From an uncultured Steroidobacter sp. (GTDB taxonomy: Bacteria; Pseudomonadota; Gammaproteobacteria; Steroidobacterales; Steroidobacteraceae), in assembly GCA_946478975.1 (NCBI GenBank), contig CAMLEO010000078.1, forward strand, positions 1 to 25,488: 25,488 nt of DNA, written 5' to 3'. The translations under genes were made by a program, and so were the position numbers. A model generated the notes under the pieces. That model was not told where the DNA came from. It made no database searches and saw only the letters and a program-made list of their open reading frames with translations. Of this stretch, positions 8,435 through 22,353 are shown piece by piece. How positions within the stretch are numbered: position 1 is the stretch's first letter; every line of letters begins with the position of its first letter.

Positions 8435-11400
8435 ATGACTAGGCGCACGGGCAAATTTCATTCGAATTTATTGAGCGTGTCGGTACTGGCACTGCTGGGC
8501 GCCGCCGGATGCGGACAAGTCAACGTTACCGAGAACGCGGTGCCGTCCTCGTCGACGCCGGGCGGCGGCACCGTGGGCACGACGCCGACGCAGCCGACCA
8601 CTCCCTCGACGCCCTCGAATCCTTCGGCGGGAACCACGCCGTCGACGCCGAGCGCGACCAATCCCGGCACGATCAATCCGCCGGCGCAAGCGATCGGCGA
8701 TTCGGCCACGGCGACTGCCAACAATGCAGTGCTCACCACCACGCGCACCACGGTCTACACGCTCAACCCGGCCGCTGTCGGCCAGGGCAGCTGGCAGAAC
8801 GCCACGCTGATTGAAAACATCAACAGCCAGGGTGCTGCGCTGTTTACTCACGTCGCGACCGACTCAGCCGGCAACGGCTTTGCGATCTGGACGTACAAAT
8901 ACGGCTACGTCTACACGTCTCGTTACACAGCGAGCACGGCCACTTGGTCTGCTCCGCTGCGCATGGACTCAGGCACTGCCGTCGCGAAAGAACCGCGCAT
9001 CGCGGTGGATCGCCAGAGCGGCAACGCCATCGCCACCTGGGTGCAGAGCGACGGCACGGCAGTCTCTCAATACGTGCGTCGCTACGATGCGGCCACCAGC
9101 ACGTGGGGCGCAGTGCAACTGCTCGAAACGACCAATGGCGCAGTCGTGGAGTCGGAAGCCACGGCCGTCTCGATCAATGGCAACCAGGCCGCGATCGTGT
9201 GGCGTCAGGCGGATGGCGCGCTCACCAATATCTATCTCTCGCGCTGGGTGAATAACGCTTGGACGCCGGGTGCCGTCGTGGATACGAGCAACAACCCCGG
9301 CCTGCGCGCCGAGGTCGCAACCGACACCAACGGCAATGTCACAATCGTGTGGCGCCAGCTCGAAGACGAACAGCGCATCCACGCGCGCCGCTGGAACAAC
9401 ACCACGCAAACGTTCGGCTCCGTCATCCTGCTCGACAACGAAGGCGATCGTCAGCCGCGGCTCGGCATGGACGCGGCCGGCAATGCGATCGCGCTCTGGC
9501 GCAACGGCGGCATTTACGTGCGCCGCTACGATGCCGCCGCCGGCACGTGGGGCCCGCAGATCACCGTCGACGGTCAAACCGGCAGCCCGATCACTGGTGA
9601 GCTGTCAGTCGACGCCGCTGGCAATGCCATCGCGGCGTGGGCACAAACCACCGGCTCCACCACCGAAGTCTTCACCGCCCGCTTCAATGGCACCACCTTG
9701 ACCTGGGCCGCGCCGGTGCTGATGGAGACGAGCACTCAGCCCGTCAACACCGACAAGAACCCGACCGTGAGCATCGATGGCAACAACGCGGTCGTCGCGT
9801 GGATCCAGAAAGATCCCACCAGCGTCGTCGACAGCGTGTACGCCAGGGAAATGAGCGATGGCGTGTGGGGCCCCGTCACACTGCTCGAAAACCTGACCGA
9901 TCGCGCCGACGATCTCACGTCGAGCATCAATCCGGCGGGCAATTCCGTCGTGGTGTGGACGCAGAACGATGCGTACGCCGCGCGTTACCAGAGCTCCAAC
10001 TTCGTCGTGCCGAACGGCGCGACCTGGCAGTCGCTCGCGAACACGCTCTACGGCGTGAACTCGGTTGAAGGCGGCAACGCGCTGCAAGCCGCGATGGGCA
10101 ACATCACACTCACTCCGGGCGCTGTTCTCACTGGCCTGCCGGCAACGCTCAGCGTCACTGCGCCGATTCCGCCGTACTACACCGTGCTCGCCACGGACAC
10201 GTGGTCGCACATCGCGCAACGGGTCTACGGCATCACCGACGTGAACGCGATTTCTCAGCTGCGTTCGCTGCTGGGCAATCCCACGCTCAGCGCGGGCCTG
10301 CAGCTGGTGGTCCCGGGCACATATAACTATGTGACTTCGGGCAACTACAGCGCGCCGCTGAACTGGGCGCTGGTCAACACGACCACGACGGCTTACTACT
10401 CGCTCAACACCAGTCAGCTGACGACTCCGCTCGACAGCTGGTCGGCGCAGGAAGCGATGGAGAGCAGCTTCGCCGAAGCGACCACGCCGCGCATCGCGTT
10501 CGACGCGAACAGCAACGGCATCGCGGTGTGGGCACAGGCGAGCGACATCATGATGTCCCGCTACGTGGCCAGCACGGCAACGTGGTCGACGCCGGTCGCG
10601 CTCGATAACAACACCAACGAAGCTCACAACGCGCGGCTCGCAGTCGATCGCGCCACGGGCAACGCGGTTGTTTCGTGGTCGCAGAGCGACGGCACCGCCG
10701 AGTCGATGTATGTGAGCAGCTTCAACGCGAGCACCAACGCGTGGAGCACGCCGACGCTGCTCGAAACGGCCAATGGCGAAGTCAGCCTCTGGTCGGAGAA
10801 CTCCGCGGCGGCGAAGGCCGGCAATTACGCGGCGGTTGCCTGGGTGCAGCTCAATGGCGCCGAGAACAACCTGTACCTGTCGCGCCTCGTGAATGGCACC
10901 TGGACTGCTCCGGCGCTGATCGACAATGTTGCTGACGATGCCGAGCAGGCCGGCGTAGCCGTGGATGGCAATGGCAACGTCACGGTGATCTGGCGCCAGT
11001 TCATGCCGGCCGACGGCGAGTACCGCATCAACGTGCGCCGCTGGAACAACAGCACGCAGGCGTATGGTGCGGTGACGTCGATCAACGGCGACGGCGAACG
11101 GCAGCCGAGCATCGCCTTCGACGCGCAGGGCAATGGCTTCGCGTTGTGGGGCGGTGGCGCATACGCCCGCCGCTTCGACGTGACCACCGGCCAGTGGGGC
11201 CCGCAGGTGCAGCTGCATGTCGGCGACATGGGCGCCTGGAACGGCGAAATCTCCGTCGACTCCGCAGGCAATGCGCTCGCGGCGTGGATGGAAAACGACG
11301 GCACGAGCGTCTCCGTTTACGCCCGTTACTACAATGTGACGACGCAGTCGTGGGGTAACGCCGTGTCGCTGGAGAACAGCGCCAACCCGGCCAACTACGA

Positions 11401-11995
11401 CAAGCCGATGTCCGTCAGCCTGGTGGACGGCGGCTCGGGCGTGGTTGCGTGGATCCAGGAAGACGGTGAGCCGAACATCTACGCCGCGCGCCTCGGCAAC
11501 GGCGTGTGGGGCCCTGCCACGATGTTGGATTCCTCGCCCGATCGCACCAACGACGTCACATCGGCCATCGATGCGAACAACAACGCGACCGTGGTGTGGA
11601 TCCAGGCCGAGTCGGTGTATCGCTCGGTTTCGAATGCGACGCCGTACTACCTCGTCCCGGCTGGTGCCACGTGGCGCTCGATCGCGGCGACCTTGTACAA
11701 CGTCGATTCGGACGCTGCCGGCCAGGCGCTGCAGACGGCGATGAACAGCCCGACGCTGACCGCGGGCCTGCATCTGCAAGGCCTGCCGGTGCAGCTGGTC
11801 GTGCGTCCGCAGGTGGCGACGCACTACATCGTTCAGGCCGGCGACACGTGGGCGAGCATCACCTCGGCGCTGTATGGAACGAATGCGACGCAGGCGGTGA
11901 CGGCGCTGCAGACAGCCACGCAGAATCCGACGCTGACTGTGGGTGCGATGTTGTTCGTGCCGAGTGAACTGCTGTACTCGGTGCCGGGCACCTGA
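8435..11995 (+). CDS. Large lipoprotein: two blocks of eight propeller-like repeats, each followed by two LysM domains
   Basis: The start at 8435 (1186 residues) follows GAGGGA and opens with a lipoprotein signal (LALLGAAGC). A Thr/Ser/Pro/Gly linker spans about residues 30-85. Two homologous units follow, offset by about 547 codons. Each has eight roughly 45-residue repeats of the type D-x-x-GNAxAxW...YxRRYDxxTxTWG (about 139-520 and 687-1068), then two LysM-like domains (about 524-575 and 581-628; 1071-1125 and 1131-1180) with the pattern TWxxIAxxLYG...NPTLxxGxxLxVP. LysM domains bind peptidoglycan GlcNAc chains, and the repeats look like beta-propeller blades. It is therefore probably a cell-envelope protein anchored by lipid and wall contact. 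No catalytic motif was seen. The gene stands alone and is closed by a strong terminator. Confidence 0.85.
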   Translation: MTRRTGKFHSNLLSVSVLALLGAAGCGQVNVTENAVPSSSTPGGGTVGTTPTQPTTPSTPSNPSAGTTPSTPSATNPGTINPPAQAIGDSATATANNAVLTTTRTTVYTLNPAAVGQGSWQNATLIENINSQGAALFTHVATDSAGNGFAIWTYKYGYVYTSRYTASTATWSAPLRMDSGTAVAKEPRIAVDRQSGNAIATWVQSDGTAVSQYVRRYDAATSTWGAVQLLETTNGAVVESEATAVSINGNQAAIVWRQADGALTNIYLSRWVNNAWTPGAVVDTSNNPGLRAEVATDTNGNVTIVWRQLEDEQRIHARRWNNTTQTFGSVILLDNEGDRQPRLGMDAAGNAIALWRNGGIYVRRYDAAAGTWGPQITVDGQTGSPITGELSVDAAGNAIAAWAQTTGSTTEVFTARFNGTTLTWAAPVLMETSTQPVNTDKNPTVSIDGNNAVVAWIQKDPTSVVDSVYAREMSDGVWGPVTLLENLTDRADDLTSSINPAGNSVVVWTQNDAYAARYQSSNFVVPNGATWQSLANTLYGVNSVEGGNALQAAMGNITLTPGAVLTGLPATLSVTAPIPPYYTVLATDTWSHIAQRVYGITDVNAISQLRSLLGNPTLSAGLQLVVPGTYNYVTSGNYSAPLNWALVNTTTTAYYSLNTSQLTTPLDSWSAQEAMESSFAEATTPRIAFDANSNGIAVWAQASDIMMSRYVASTATWSTPVALDNNTNEAHNARLAVDRATGNAVVSWSQSDGTAESMYVSSFNASTNAWSTPTLLETANGEVSLWSENSAAAKAGNYAAVAWVQLNGAENNLYLSRLVNGTWTAPALIDNVADDAEQAGVAVDGNGNVTVIWRQFMPADGEYRINVRRWNNSTQAYGAVTSINGDGERQPSIAFDAQGNGFALWGGGAYARRFDVTTGQWGPQVQLHVGDMGAWNGEISVDSAGNALAAWMENDGTSVSVYARYYNVTTQSWGNAVSLENSANPANYDKPMSVSLVDGGSGVVAWIQEDGEPNIYAARLGNGVWGPATMLDSSPDRTNDVTSAIDANNNATVVWIQAESVYRSVSNATPYYLVPAGATWRSIAATLYNVDSDAAGQALQTAMNSPTLTAGLHLQGLPVQLVVRPQVATHYIVQAGDTWASITSALYGTNATQAVTALQTATQNPTLTVGAMLFVPSELLYSVPGT
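8735..10335 (+). repeat. First copy of the internal 1.64-kb duplication
   Basis: This is the first unit of the lipoprotein gene's segmental duplication. Landmark codons (the Tyr at 8756, the GNVT-x-x-WRQ arginine at 9353, the LysM proline at 10010) recur 1641-1647 bases downstream. Both the repeat order and the paired LysM domains are kept, so the whole unit was duplicated rather than single repeats. The copies are clearly diverged at the nucleotide level. Confidence 0.75.
10376..11983 (+). repeat. Second copy of the internal 1.64-kb duplication
   Basis: This is the second unit, with the same eight-repeat plus two-LysM order. Its last LysM is the most canonical of the four (VQAGDTWASI), whereas the other three have NGATW, ATDTW or AGATW in place of GDTW. 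The two units are joined by about a dozen residues without repeat character. Confidence 0.75.
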
Positions 11996-19499: not shown

Positions 19500-20384
19500 T
19501 TACTCGCACATGCGCGGTCCGCGCTCGTCCCAAATAAACAGCTGCCTGCTTTGGGCTCGGATCGCGCCGAGATGTCGTTCGCATTGATTGAAGACCTCGC
19601 CTTCTATGCGATGCGCGAACTCGACGGCCGGACAACAGACGCCGGGAACGGTGTAGAACAAATATCCCACGATCAGCACATCCTGGTTCCCGTCGTATTT
19701 TCTGGCCGAGAAGATGGAGTTGACCGGATGACAATCGAACACGCGAAACGACAGAGTCCCGGTCAGTTTCCATCGCTCCTGTAGAGCAGCCGGTACATTC
19801 CGATACGCATGAGCGATCGCCTCGATGGCTTGCACCGCGGTTTTCAGATCCTGGAGCGTGCCTTGATTCTCCGCCTCGCTCTCGCGCTCAGCTGCGTAGG
19901 CCGCATCGGCGCTCAGGAAGTAAATGTTTGCTTTGAACGGATCGCCATTGGTGAGTCTGCGGTAAAGCGCGCTTCCCTGGCAGTCCTCCAGCGAGAACGG
20001 CTCCTGCCCGCCCTCATAGTTGGGAAACAGCCCGCTCAAGATGGGCTTGCAGGCGACGCCGAGCACGTCGATCTCATAGGAGGTGTCGAAATGTTTCTCG
20101 TAAGTCTGCCTGGCCAGGCGATCGCGATGAGGAATCACACGACTGCCGGGGTTGTCGCGATGGTTGAGCAACTGCTCCAGGTGTCGAGCGGATTCCGATT
20201 CGAACCACAGCACGAACAGCAGTGACGCCACCACGTTGGCCAGCAGCCCGGCCATGAATTCCAGGCCCCAGTCCCATCCGTCATGCGACGTCTGTCCGTT
20301 CTTGATGGCGATTACCGCCAGCAGCAGGATCGCCGCAGCCAGGCAAATCAGTATCGCTTTGAAAAGGTACGACGACAGCCTCAT
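19500..20384 (-). CDS. Two-TM membrane protein with an unrecognised cytosolic domain
   Basis: The protein has 294 residues. Two N-terminal TM helices (about 8-28 and 41-61) are joined by a short loop containing GWDWG, and the remaining 230 residues should be cytosolic. The soluble part has an alternating alpha/beta look: YEIDVLGVACKPIL (103-116), KANIYFLSADAAY (151-163), LSFRVFDCHPVNSIFS (211-226), DVLIVGYLFYT (235-245). The pattern of strand, then D-x-H-P-x-N-S, then strand resembles domains distantly related to phospholipase-D-like folds that follow HTH or TM regions in other bacteria, but no HKD catalytic motif is visible and I am not sure of the family. Its ATG overlaps the previous gene's TGA (ATGA), so it is the last gene of a coupled three-gene operon. 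It is convergent with the Lrp gene. Confidence 0.78.
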   Translation of the reverse strand: MRLSSYLFKAILICLAAAILLLAVIAIKNGQTSHDGWDWGLEFMAGLLANVVASLLFVLWFESESARHLEQLLNHRDNPGSRVIPHRDRLARQTYEKHFDTSYEIDVLGVACKPILSGLFPNYEGGQEPFSLEDCQGSALYRRLTNGDPFKANIYFLSADAAYAAERESEAENQGTLQDLKTAVQAIEAIAHAYRNVPAALQERWKLTGTLSFRVFDCHPVNSIFSARKYDGNQDVLIVGYLFYTVPGVCCPAVEFAHRIEGEVFNQCERHLGAIRAQSRQLFIWDERGPRMCE

Positions 20385-21700
20385 GCGCTGGCGCCCAGGT
20401 GCTGCGTCAGAGGAACGAAGCCGAGTCCCGGCAAGGACTGGTAACCGCTCACGCCGCTCGGGACGCGCGCAAACACGCCGTCAAAATCCTGCAAACCGCT
20501 GCACGCGCGCGAGATCGGCCCATACACGACGAACGCGTGATAGACATTCTTGTCCGGCAGCTGACAGGTTTCGAAAAAGTTTGCACCTTTGACGAACACC
20601 GCATCCGCTGCATCCAGGATTTTCAGCGCGGCCGGTGGGAGAAGATTGCTTTGAAACGAAATGAACGGACAATAGATCGAGGTGACGCGCAGGCGATCCG
20701 ACGAGCACGAAAACAGGCTCCGGAAACTCGGGTGACGGCGCACGGCGGCGAGCATCTGCGAGCAGAAGTTGATACTCACCTGAACGACGTTGACCAACAG
20801 GTGCACCCGCAGGAACGGGAACAACAACAGCAAGTCTTGCAGCCAGAGCAGGTCATCCACCGATTCCGCCGCGTCGTCGAGAACGACGGCGAGTTCGAAA
20901 TCGTTCCTGCGACGACCGGCTTCCGCAATCTCTCCAAGCAGCCGTTGACGATCGTCGATCGCGAGCGCGGTGCCCACAAATTGGAATGTTACATCCTGCA
21001 CGCGCTTCACCGCCGACCGATCGAGTCGGGCGCCGCCACGACGGCTTTCGATGAACGACACCCCTCGGCCAAGCGCCGTGCTCATTTTGTCCAGCAAGGA
21101 CAAGTTGGCGTGCTCCGGCATCAATGCCAGAGCGGCGTGCAGCGATCGGCGCGTCGCCGCTATTTCCTGCCGTTCCGAGTCGTAGCACCGCCGGCCCACC
21201 AGCGCTTCAACCACCTTGGAGATCAGGAACATGTTGAAGTTGTTGTTGATGTTCTTGATCAGGAAGTGCTGGTTCGCCTGGTACAGCGTCGCGAGCAGCA
21301 CGCATGCATCGTCGAGCAGTGCGTCCACTTTCTCGGCCTCCAGGCGCCCTTCACGAGCGAGGTTGGCCAGGATTCGATACAGCGCATTGGTGTTGTAAGT
21401 AAACGAGACCGCCAGGTGCAGCGGCGTCGCGTCGCGCCAGGCGAACGGGGGTTGCGGAATCGTATCGCCCAACTCGAATGGCACACCGGGAATGCGGGGG
21501 AAAAATCGTTGCTGTATCTCTAGCCAGCTCAGTCGGCCAGCGCCGCTGGCCGGCAGGTTGCCGTAGATTTCCAGGAATCGCAGCGGGTCGTGATGAGAAA
21601 TTCCTTTCACACGGACGGCGCAGCTCCGGATGGCCTGCAGATCGAGCTCCGCTTCCTTGCCCTGCCAGAAGCAGATCCGGGTGGCGCGGCTGGCATTCAT
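20381..21700 (-). CDS. Divergent DUF89/ARMT1-like metal-dependent phosphatase
   Basis: The start is the ATG at 21700, which overlaps the HIT gene's TGA by ATGA and gives 439 residues; a longer frame to 22099 would overlap that gene. The N-terminal half is helical. The C-terminal half matches the DUF89/ARMT1 (damage-control phosphatase) pattern: VVLDDAAESVDDLLWLQ (272-288) for the LDNxGE-x-x-x-DL motif, VNVVQVSINFCS (303-314) with Asn311 for the second metal site, and ADAVFVKGANFFET (365-378) for the KGxxNFE motif. The canonical Asn of LDN is Asp276 and the Asp after Asn311 is Phe313-like, so it is divergent. The family removes phosphate from damaged or surplus sugar/nucleotide/pantetheine phosphates. 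The fold assignment is from motif pattern only. Confidence 0.7.
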   Translation of the reverse strand: MNASRATRICFWQGKEAELDLQAIRSCAVRVKGISHHDPLRFLEIYGNLPASGAGRLSWLEIQQRFFPRIPGVPFELGDTIPQPPFAWRDATPLHLAVSFTYNTNALYRILANLAREGRLEAEKVDALLDDACVLLATLYQANQHFLIKNINNNFNMFLISKVVEALVGRRCYDSERQEIAATRRSLHAALALMPEHANLSLLDKMSTALGRGVSFIESRRGGARLDRSAVKRVQDVTFQFVGTALAIDDRQRLLGEIAEAGRRRNDFELAVVLDDAAESVDDLLWLQDLLLLFPFLRVHLLVNVVQVSINFCSQMLAAVRRHPSFRSLFSCSSDRLRVTSIYCPFISFQSNLLPPAALKILDAADAVFVKGANFFETCQLPDKNVYHAFVVYGPISRACSGLQDFDGVFARVPSGVSGYQSLPGLGFVPLTQHLGASA

Positions 21701-22353
21701 TTCACGGCATCGTCCATCATGGGATCGGCGAAGACGAAGCCACGCAGCGCAAGCTCCCAATTCCAGTGCTGCAGATTCAGCAGGCGAGCCAGATGACGCC
21801 GTACGAACTGACACGGCAACGGCACCGTAATTCGCCGCACCAGGTGACCGCGACCGCTGTGGTCCTCGCAGGCAAGATAGTCGCCGGCGGCACATTCGCT
21901 CAGTACCCGCGATGGGAAAACGGCCGCATGCCGCGTCGTTTCGCCCACTTCCCGGATCCAGTCGGCCACCGGAGCCTCGCCCGGAATGAAATGAATGTGG
22001 GCGTGCGCAATACACGCCCCAGCGGACACCTCGCCGACTCTCGCGCCGTGCTCGAACAACACCGGCGACGCGAAGCGACGCGTCACCAGCTGAATGCATT
22101 CGGCCTTGAACTCCCTGAGCTCCTCGCGCTCCCTGCCGGAGAGCTGCCCGAAGTTCGAGTAATGCTTTTTGGGAATGAGCAGGCTGTGCCCGGCAACCAG
22201 CGGCGAAATATCGCGCAGCAGGATGAAGCGCTCGGATTCGAGCAGGATCTTGTCCTGCTCCGATTCGTACAGCGCCAGCAGCGACGACAAGGGCCGATTC
22301 CCGCTCAGCTCATCGCATAGCAAGCAATCGCTCGTCGAGAACAAATCGCGCAT
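21697..22353 (-). CDS. HIT-superfamily nucleotide hydrolase/transferase
   Basis: The protein has 218 residues. CLLC at 10-13 recalls the N-terminal Cys pair of zinc-binding HIT proteins. The N-terminal sheet (ERFILLRDISPLVAGHSLLIPKKHY, 41-64) is typical of the HIT fold, and FEHG (100-103) precedes the histidine triad HAHIHFIP (His117, His119, His121). HIT proteins attack nucleotide alpha-phosphates through the central histidine, hydrolysing or transferring NMP (AMP-lysine, Ap4A, nucleotide sugars). The C-terminal 90 residues are an extension of uncertain role with LVRRITVPLPCQFVRRHLARLL. It is the first gene of a three-gene chain with 4-base overlaps. No strong ribosome-binding site precedes this ATG, and an in-frame stop lies about 30 bases upstream. 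The substrate is unknown. Confidence 0.85.
   Translation of the reverse strand: MRDLFSTSDCLLCDELSGNRPLSSLLALYESEQDKILLESERFILLRDISPLVAGHSLLIPKKHYSNFGQLSGREREELREFKAECIQLVTRRFASPVLFEHGARVGEVSAGACIAHAHIHFIPGEAPVADWIREVGETTRHAAVFPSRVLSECAAGDYLACEDHSGRGHLVRRITVPLPCQFVRRHLARLLNLQHWNWELALRGFVFADPMMDDAVK

What the first reader, a model, noticed from the sequence alone, without database searches (positions are those of the whole stretch)
19500..22353. Three-gene operon: HIT hydrolase, ARMT1-like phosphatase and 2TM protein joined by ATGA overlaps
Both junctions are 4-base ATGA overlaps (at 21697-21700 and 20381-20384), which implies tight translational coupling and equal stoichiometry. A nucleotide-handling HIT enzyme, a divergent DUF89/ARMT1-like phosphatase and a two-TM protein with a cytosolic domain form a set I do not recognise from any housekeeping pathway. 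Compact chains of nucleotide enzymes ending in a membrane effector occur in nucleotide-signalling defence and stress systems, so this could be a small-molecule repair or signalling module. The operon architecture is seen; the functional idea is inference.
Basis: partly seen in the sequence, partly recalled or inferred. Interest (0 to 1): 0.75.

Follow-up and report, generated by a model that had tools for sequence, protein, structure and literature searches.

The report
HIT–DUF89-like–membrane operon, probably conflict-linked
Three tightly overlapping bacterial genes encode a nucleotide-handling enzyme, an unusual member of a metabolite-phosphatase fold and a membrane protein; relatives of these parts are joined to immune-type, probably NAD-destroying proteins, so this may be a rare, uncharacterised defence or stress module, though no function has been tested.

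The parts
21697..22353 (-). Gene 1: HIT-family protein, 218 aa, with C-terminal extension (P.QF.RR..A....W.W)
   Evidence: Pfam HIT 8.7e-11; alignment with 3 relatives
21991..22005 (-). Histidine triad H117-A-H119-I-H121 of gene 1
   Evidence: All three His invariant in the 4 aligned sequences, the window's included
21697..21700 (-). ATGA overlap gene 1 / gene 2
   Evidence: sequence
20381..21700 (-). Gene 2: 439-aa divergent DUF89/ARMT1-fold protein with ~85-residue N-terminal extension
20852..20878 (-). Motif D275-D276-A-A-E279...D283, equivalent of the DUF89 DNxGE...D motif
   Evidence: 103 of 103 sequences with a residue there, of 105; profile alignment to canonical DUF89
20768..20791 (-). 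Motif N304..Q307.S309.N311; N311 sits where DUF89 enzymes have their second catalytic Asp (inferred)
   Evidence: N311 103 of 103; same 36-residue spacing as PANK4 Asp623-Asp659 (PMC9352595 passages)
20570..20590 (-). Motif K371-G372..F376-E377, DUF89 KG...E motif, kept
   Evidence: K371 103 of 104, E377 102 of 102
20381..20384 (-). ATGA overlap gene 2 / gene 3
   Evidence: sequence
19500..20384 (-). Gene 3: 294-aa two-TM protein
   Evidence: ORF; one homologue, 70%
20199..20366 (-). Two predicted transmembrane segments of gene 3 (about residues 7-27 and 39-62)
   Evidence: hydropathy; N-terminal helices in a poor model
19620..20171 (-). Soluble domain of gene 3 (residues 72-255), shared with the TIR protein of L001
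   Evidence: BLASTP 2e-14, 24% identity

Best explanation
A rare, patchily distributed conflict-type (probably anti-phage or stress) module. SHOWN: an enzyme pair, HIT plus a divergent DUF89-fold protein, sits in one operon with a third protein made of a shared soluble domain and an exchangeable output part (two TM helices in the window, TIR in L001). INFERRED: the HIT and DUF89-like enzymes make, edit or erase a nucleotide- or sugar-phosphate-linked small molecule; the soluble domain of protein 3 reads that molecule, or its absence, and switches on an output, membrane perturbation here and NAD+ cleavage in the TIR version. In the Chloroflexota versions the DUF89-like domain is built into a SIR2- or DUF4062-NACHT-FGE protein, with Nudix in place of HIT. 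Direction (maker or eraser of the signal) is unknown.
For: HIT directly upstream of the middle gene in L001 and L002, the 2 other loci with a close homologue that could be read, as in the window, and a HIT-middle fusion, P0040 (HIT 4.6e-7). Gene 3 soluble domain shared (2e-14) with the L001 gene in the same position, which carries TIR_2 1.2e-11. The L002 gene run starts with TIR_2 6.1e-17 + FGE 4e-46. L012: SIR2_2-NACHT-FGE-ARMT1-like in one 1489-aa protein, N-terminus like ThsA SIR2 in PADLOC, 4.2e-30. L023: DUF4062-NACHT-FGE-ARMT1-like. Both are followed by Nudix, aminotransferase and Gfo/Idh genes in the same order. DUF4062 is reported as an antiphage TIR-like NADase (PMC13174449, abstract and outline). 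The two branches are specific relatives: hhalign 99.4%, 6.3e-22 over 285 columns, against 93.3%, 2.8e-7 to canonical DUF89; the reverse search hit 2 of 24 genomes, the seed and L002's (1.6e-18). Very patchy: 1 of 396, 1 of 400, 1 of 257, 2 of 396, 1 of 399 genomes, seeds included, samples overlapping. Control: NADase, NACHT, FGE, HIT and Nudix queries hit 0 of 10 canonical DUF89 neighbourhoods. HIT (ThsC) accompanies 2.4% of Thoeris systems (PMC8565338, passage).
Against: Only 5 loci with context could be read, the window included; L012 and L023 have no HIT seen and L002 no gene-3 homologue seen. Window flanks are core-type genes (10 flanking ORFs), no TIR, SIR2, DUF4062, FGE, NACHT or Nudix hit in 25 kb with the queries, GC close to the surroundings (0.602 against 0.620). 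No relative of the middle protein in viral contigs, plasmids or phages, none of gene 3 in viral contigs or plasmids. PADLOC gives only a weak ThsC hit for gene 1 (3.5e-4), and for L023's giant protein only weak ATPase hits. TIR is not rare in these genomes: 2 of 10 arbitrarily chosen 16-kb stretches, both among the 3 from G1634, the genome of L023. Methyltransferases (L002), aminotransferase and oxidoreductase (L012, L023), and the biosynthetic-looking setting of a HIT relative in L006, fit metabolism as well. The shared-domain search found no further member.
Confidence: 0.5

Rival explanations
1. Small-molecule biosynthesis or metabolite-repair operon: HIT and the DUF89-like protein act in series on a phosphorylated, nucleotide-activated intermediate; the 2TM protein is an accessory or membrane anchor. 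TIR and NACHT partners elsewhere reflect recruitment of the pathway by conflict systems.
For: The DUF89 domain of PANK4 and characterised relatives are metabolite phosphatases (PMC9352595 passages). L002 has two SAM methyltransferase proteins in the gene run; L012 and L023 have Nudix, class-III aminotransferase, Gfo/Idh/MocA; the HIT relative with a similar C-terminal extension in L006 lies among PfkB, a TrpD-like protein (Pfam Glycos_transf_3) and a methyltransferase, with cysteine desulfurase-like and PhyH-like ORFs named by eye.
Against: Partners vary more than in a fixed pathway; predicted NADase partners in 4 of 5 loci; direct fusion to SIR2- and DUF4062-NACHT-FGE proteins; very low frequency.
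Confidence: 0.3
2. Toxin with two neutralising enzymes: gene 3 (2TM or TIR) is the harmful part, and HIT plus DUF89-like remove a small ligand that would trigger it (eraser model).
For: Overlapping genes with the output last; the PADLOC authors propose that ThsC might form or degrade the signal, perhaps as an off-switch (PMC8565338 passage); histidine triad intact.
Against: No ligand-making enzyme recognised in the window operon; second essential DUF89 Asp apparently replaced, so hydrolase activity is unproved.
Confidence: 0.13
3. Chance neighbours: three unrelated genes in one transcript with no joint function.
For: Gene 3 has only one homologue in the protein search, so its linkage to the pair rests on the window and L001.
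Against: HIT-middle adjacency in 2 of 2 other loci plus a fusion; gene 3 domain in the same position in L001.
Confidence: 0.04

Closest known systems
DUF89 / ARMT1 damage-control phosphatases (PH1575 2g8l, At2g17340 1xfi, yeast DUF89 entries, PANK4 domain)
   Different: No PF01937 hit; Asn311 in place of the second essential Asp; Asp276 where Asn is usual; own N-terminal extension; linked to HIT
Thoeris, especially the HIT-containing variant with ThsC (PADLOC type II)
   Same: HIT protein in one gene run with a TIR protein (L001, L002); ThsA-like SIR2 in L012
   Different: No TIR or SIR2 found in the window; a DUF89-like protein is present instead
STAND/NACHT conflict proteins with SIR2 or DUF4062 and FGE domains
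   Same: L012 and L023 have SIR2_2 or DUF4062 + NACHT + FGE
   Different: They end in a DUF89-like domain and head a Nudix-aminotransferase-oxidoreductase run; no NACHT hit in the window
Nucleotide-signalling systems with 2TM effectors (CBASS, Panoptes, SLATT; 2TM parts of the first two recalled)
   Same: Works-like only: compact operon ending in a 2TM protein with a soluble domain
   Different: No cyclase recognised in the operon; SLATT_1 match insignificant (E 1.7)

Membership tests
HIT superfamily | HIT domain with intact histidine triad | tested here: met
   Pfam 8.7e-11; H117, H119, H121 in all 4 aligned sequences
DUF89/ARMT1 | DUF89 fold | tested here: met
DUF89/ARMT1 | Match to PF01937 above curated cut-off | tested here: not met
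   No hit for P0001; 3 of 29 family members hit, best E 0.034
DUF89/ARMT1 | Two essential catalytic Asp (PANK4 Asp623, Asp659) | tested here: not met
   First kept (D275), second is Asn311 in 103 of 103; equivalence rests on profile alignment and equal spacing, not on coordinates
DUF89/ARMT1 | Metal-dependent phosphatase activity | not testable with these tools
   needs protein
Thoeris | TIR ThsB plus ThsA effector | tested here: not met
   tblastn of three TIR and two SIR2 pieces: no window hit at 1e-3 (distant forms could be missed); PADLOC on the three proteins gave only weak ThsC
CBASS / Panoptes / Pycsar | nucleotide cyclase or polymerase in the operon | tested here: not met
   None among the three proteins in Pfam, NCBIfam, PADLOC
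SLATT 2TM effectors | SLATT domain | tested here: inconclusive
   SLATT_1 E 1.7, 8.6 bits against cut-off 41; gene 3 model too poor (pLDDT 50.8)
Conflict/defence module in general | confers protection or abortive response | not testable with these tools
   needs experiment

The most novel reading that the evidence does not exclude
A new class of nucleotide-linked immune signalling in which a HIT enzyme and a ligand-swapped DUF89-fold enzyme (Asp-Asp...Asn instead of Asp-Asn...Asp) make or edit the signal, a previously undescribed soluble domain reads it, and outputs are swapped between membrane (2TM) and NAD+-destroying (TIR) forms; a sister of the same enzyme domain was separately wired into SIR2/DUF4062-NACHT-FGE receptors.
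Probability: 0.25. Interest if true: 0.85.

Novelty: new variant of a known kind. Interest (0 to 1): 0.6.

Why it matters
DUF89/ARMT1 proteins are known as metabolite phosphatases. An altered version tied to HIT, TIR, SIR2, DUF4062 and NACHT partners would mean that a metabolite-repair fold has been recruited to bacterial conflict signalling, and would point to a signal or substrate not yet known. The operon gives a small test system: three genes, one predicted output.

Tried and rejected
Searches that led nowhere: the middle-family profile against PDB sequences gave only chance-level matches to a P450 (best E 0.36). No relative in viral contigs for middle, gene 3 or HIT; none for the middle in phages or plasmids (a divergent member in plasmids); none in plasmids for gene 3, the L012 DUF89-like domain or the L012 Nudix. 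Gene 3 was not searched against phages. Gene 3 found one homologue; the L001 soluble domain only itself. Gene 3 structure: pLDDT 50.8 from three sequences; Foldseek with it gave 0 matches at E <= 0.001, treated as meaningless. HIT relatives on plasmids: 7 records; only L006 aligned over the C-terminal extension; of the other 6, the 4 fetched (L007-L010) showed no DUF89, TIR or SIR2 name in their annotation.

Considered and rejected: 'defence island' for the window (flanks are core-type); 'Thoeris' (no TIR or SIR2 found); 'foreign by composition' (GC only slightly lower); counting the test-locus hits as evidence (the queries were cut from those loci; only the control rows inform, and the 'random' stretches were chosen by hand).

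Literature, open PMC library only, listings seen in part: searches (0 papers; 2 of 2; 10 of 16; 15 of 1,904; 15 of 22; 15 of 1,140; 0; 8 of 23; 6 of 79), 118 (2 of 2). None listed joined DUF89/ARMT1 with phage defence; the unlisted rest and subscription papers were not seen. Term searches inside PMC9503650, PMC7159879 and PMC13092281 found no DUF89 or ARMT1. Huang et al. on DUF89 is not held; that the usual metal set is Asp-Asn-Asp is recalled.

Full report
OBSERVATION. The three genes exist where stated: HIT 22353..21697, a 439-aa protein 21700..20381 and a 294-aa protein 20384..19500, all on the minus strand, with ATGA at both junctions. There is a 216-base gap to the regulator gene upstream and 48 bases to the convergent Lrp-type gene downstream. 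The neighbours are ordinary: alanine dehydrogenase and an Lrp/AsnC regulator on one side; a LysR-type-HTH (ModE-like by eye) regulator, a solute-binding protein, an ABC ATPase with TOBE and a permease on the other (10 flanking ORFs scanned). GC of the operon (0.602) is close to that of the window (0.620).

GENE 1. A HIT protein (Pfam 8.7e-11) with all three histidines (H117, H119, H121), invariant in the 4 sequences aligned (window, L001, L002, P0040), and a C-terminal extension with P..QF.RR..A....W.W. Of 7 plasmid records with a HIT relative, only L006 from Rhizobium leguminosarum aligned over the extension (27%). It lies between PfkB, cysteine desulfurase-like, TrpD-like and methyltransferase genes (the desulfurase name is by eye), a biosynthetic-looking setting.

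ACTIVE SITE. In P0001 plus its 104 homologues, D275, D276, E279, D283, N304, S309 and N311 are invariant in the 103 sequences that have a residue there; K371 in 103 of 104, E377 in 102 of 102. In characterised DUF89 enzymes two Asp are essential (PANK4 Asp623 and Asp659; passages of PMC9352595). They are 36 residues apart, as are D275 and N311. So the second essential Asp appears to be an invariant Asn here, and the residue after the first Asp, Asn in the 6 of 10 canonical proteins whose motif I saw, is Asp276. That is an inference from alignment, without coordinates. It suggests a rearranged metal site: a changed phosphatase, or a binding protein. The fusion-type domains below also align Asn at the second site but have DN at the first.

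GENE 3. Two hydrophobic N-terminal segments (a third window, 236-254, just passes the threshold), then a soluble domain. Only one homologue, 70%. But BLASTP to the third gene of L001 gives 2e-14 over residues 72-255 (24%).

OTHER LOCI WITH A CLOSE MIDDLE GENE. The genome-contig scan found two. L001 (Bryobacterales): HIT (cut by the contig end), middle, then with an ATGA overlap a protein made of the shared soluble domain plus TIR (TIR_2 1.2e-11; the frame appears to break within TIR). L002 (Chloroflexi): TIR_2-FGE (6.1e-17, 4e-46), two SAM methyltransferase proteins, HIT, middle, then a transposase-like ORF on the other strand (by eye). Thus HIT lies directly upstream in 2 of 2 other loci, as in the window, and both have a TIR protein in the run.

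DISTANT VERSION. Genome profile searches found the middle family in 1 of 396 (phylum of L001's genome), 1 of 400 (phylum of L002's), 1 of 257 (order of L001's), 2 of 396 (class of L002's), 1 of 100 (relatives of G1179) and 1 of 399 (class of L001's); samples overlap and include the seed genomes. The only new genome was G1179 (4e-24): its domain ends a 1489-aa protein SIR2_2 (3.4e-18) - NACHT (4e-9) - FGE (2e-43) - ARMT1-like (4.5e-5, just under Pfam's cut-off), followed by Nudix, class-III aminotransferase, Gfo/Idh/MocA and a SIR2_2 protein (L012). A PF01937 search of 26 genomes (8 with hits) turned up a second in G1634: DUF4062 (2.4e-18) - NACHT (6.4e-5) - FGE (3.2e-46) - ARMT1-like (1.1e-4; NACHT and ARMT1-like under their cut-offs), followed by Nudix, aminotransferase, Gfo/Idh/MocA, a TIR_2-FGE protein with weak NACHT, and a second Nudix (L023). 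The two domains share 45% identity, and the loci share gene order. They match the window family at 6.3e-22, and the reverse search of 24 genomes hit two, the seed and L002's genome at 1.6e-18.

CONTROL. tblastn with TIR, SIR2, DUF4062, FGE, NACHT, HIT and Nudix pieces cut from the test loci: 0 of 10 canonical DUF89 neighbourhoods (6 to 17 kb, some cut by contig ends), but 2 of 10 arbitrarily chosen 16-kb stretches (TIR in both, FGE in one), both among the 3 from G1634. So the separate TIR gene near L023 is weak evidence; operon membership and direct fusion are the stronger points. The window itself shows only HIT.

READING. The DUF89-like domain keeps company with predicted NADases (TIR, SIR2, DUF4062) in 4 of 5 loci, the window being the exception, and with a nucleotide-cleaving-type enzyme (HIT in 3, Nudix in 2) in 5 of 5. 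DUF4062 is reported to be a TIR-like NADase of an antiphage system (PMC13174449, abstract and outline); HIT proteins (ThsC) accompany some Thoeris systems and were proposed to form or degrade the signal (PMC8565338, passages); FGS/FGE, TIR and STAND-type domains recur in described conflict systems (PMC7159879, passages). I therefore favour a conflict-type module with a small-molecule signal, at 0.5. The chief rival, a small-molecule pathway, rests on the methyltransferase, aminotransferase and oxidoreductase neighbours; both may be true if the pathway makes the signal.

LIMITS. Five loci only; no genome held for the window; no viral, phage or plasmid relative of the middle protein found; gene 3 cannot be modelled; no activity known. 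In the open library, listings seen in part (call numbers and shares under Tried and rejected), no paper joining DUF89 with defence appeared.

Noticed in passing
L012:5113-13745 and L023:1996-12221: Two loci with the same order: SIR2- or DUF4062-NACHT-FGE-DUF89-like protein, Nudix, class-III aminotransferase, Gfo/Idh/MocA, then another SIR2 or TIR protein. It deserves a study of its own.
   Followed up: partly
L006:2777-9329: Rhizobium leguminosarum pRL1: HIT relative within an SDR, PfkB, cysteine desulfurase-like, TrpD-like, methyltransferase, PhyH-like run (some names by eye), a probable biosynthetic cluster.
   Followed up: partly
window:8306-11995: 1229-aa open frame (+) without a Pfam hit at 1e-5, with a 739-aa frame on the opposite strand (9605-11824); which is coding was not settled.
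   Followed up: no
L002:1846-5279: Two proteins with C-terminal SAM methyltransferase domains and long N-terminal parts without Pfam match, overlapping each other and HIT; PADLOC matches the second one's methyltransferase to mad2 (3.8e-13).
   Followed up: no
L012:14028-14642: Membrane protein with an 8xMP match below the cut-off, upstream of the SIR2-NACHT-FGE-DUF89-like gene.
   Followed up: no
L023:3-1562: Open frame with RHS/YD-type repeats (by eye) next to the second Nudix.
   Followed up: no
L001:3562-4380: Nudix-like open frame (by eye) on the opposite strand downstream of the TIR gene.
   Followed up: no
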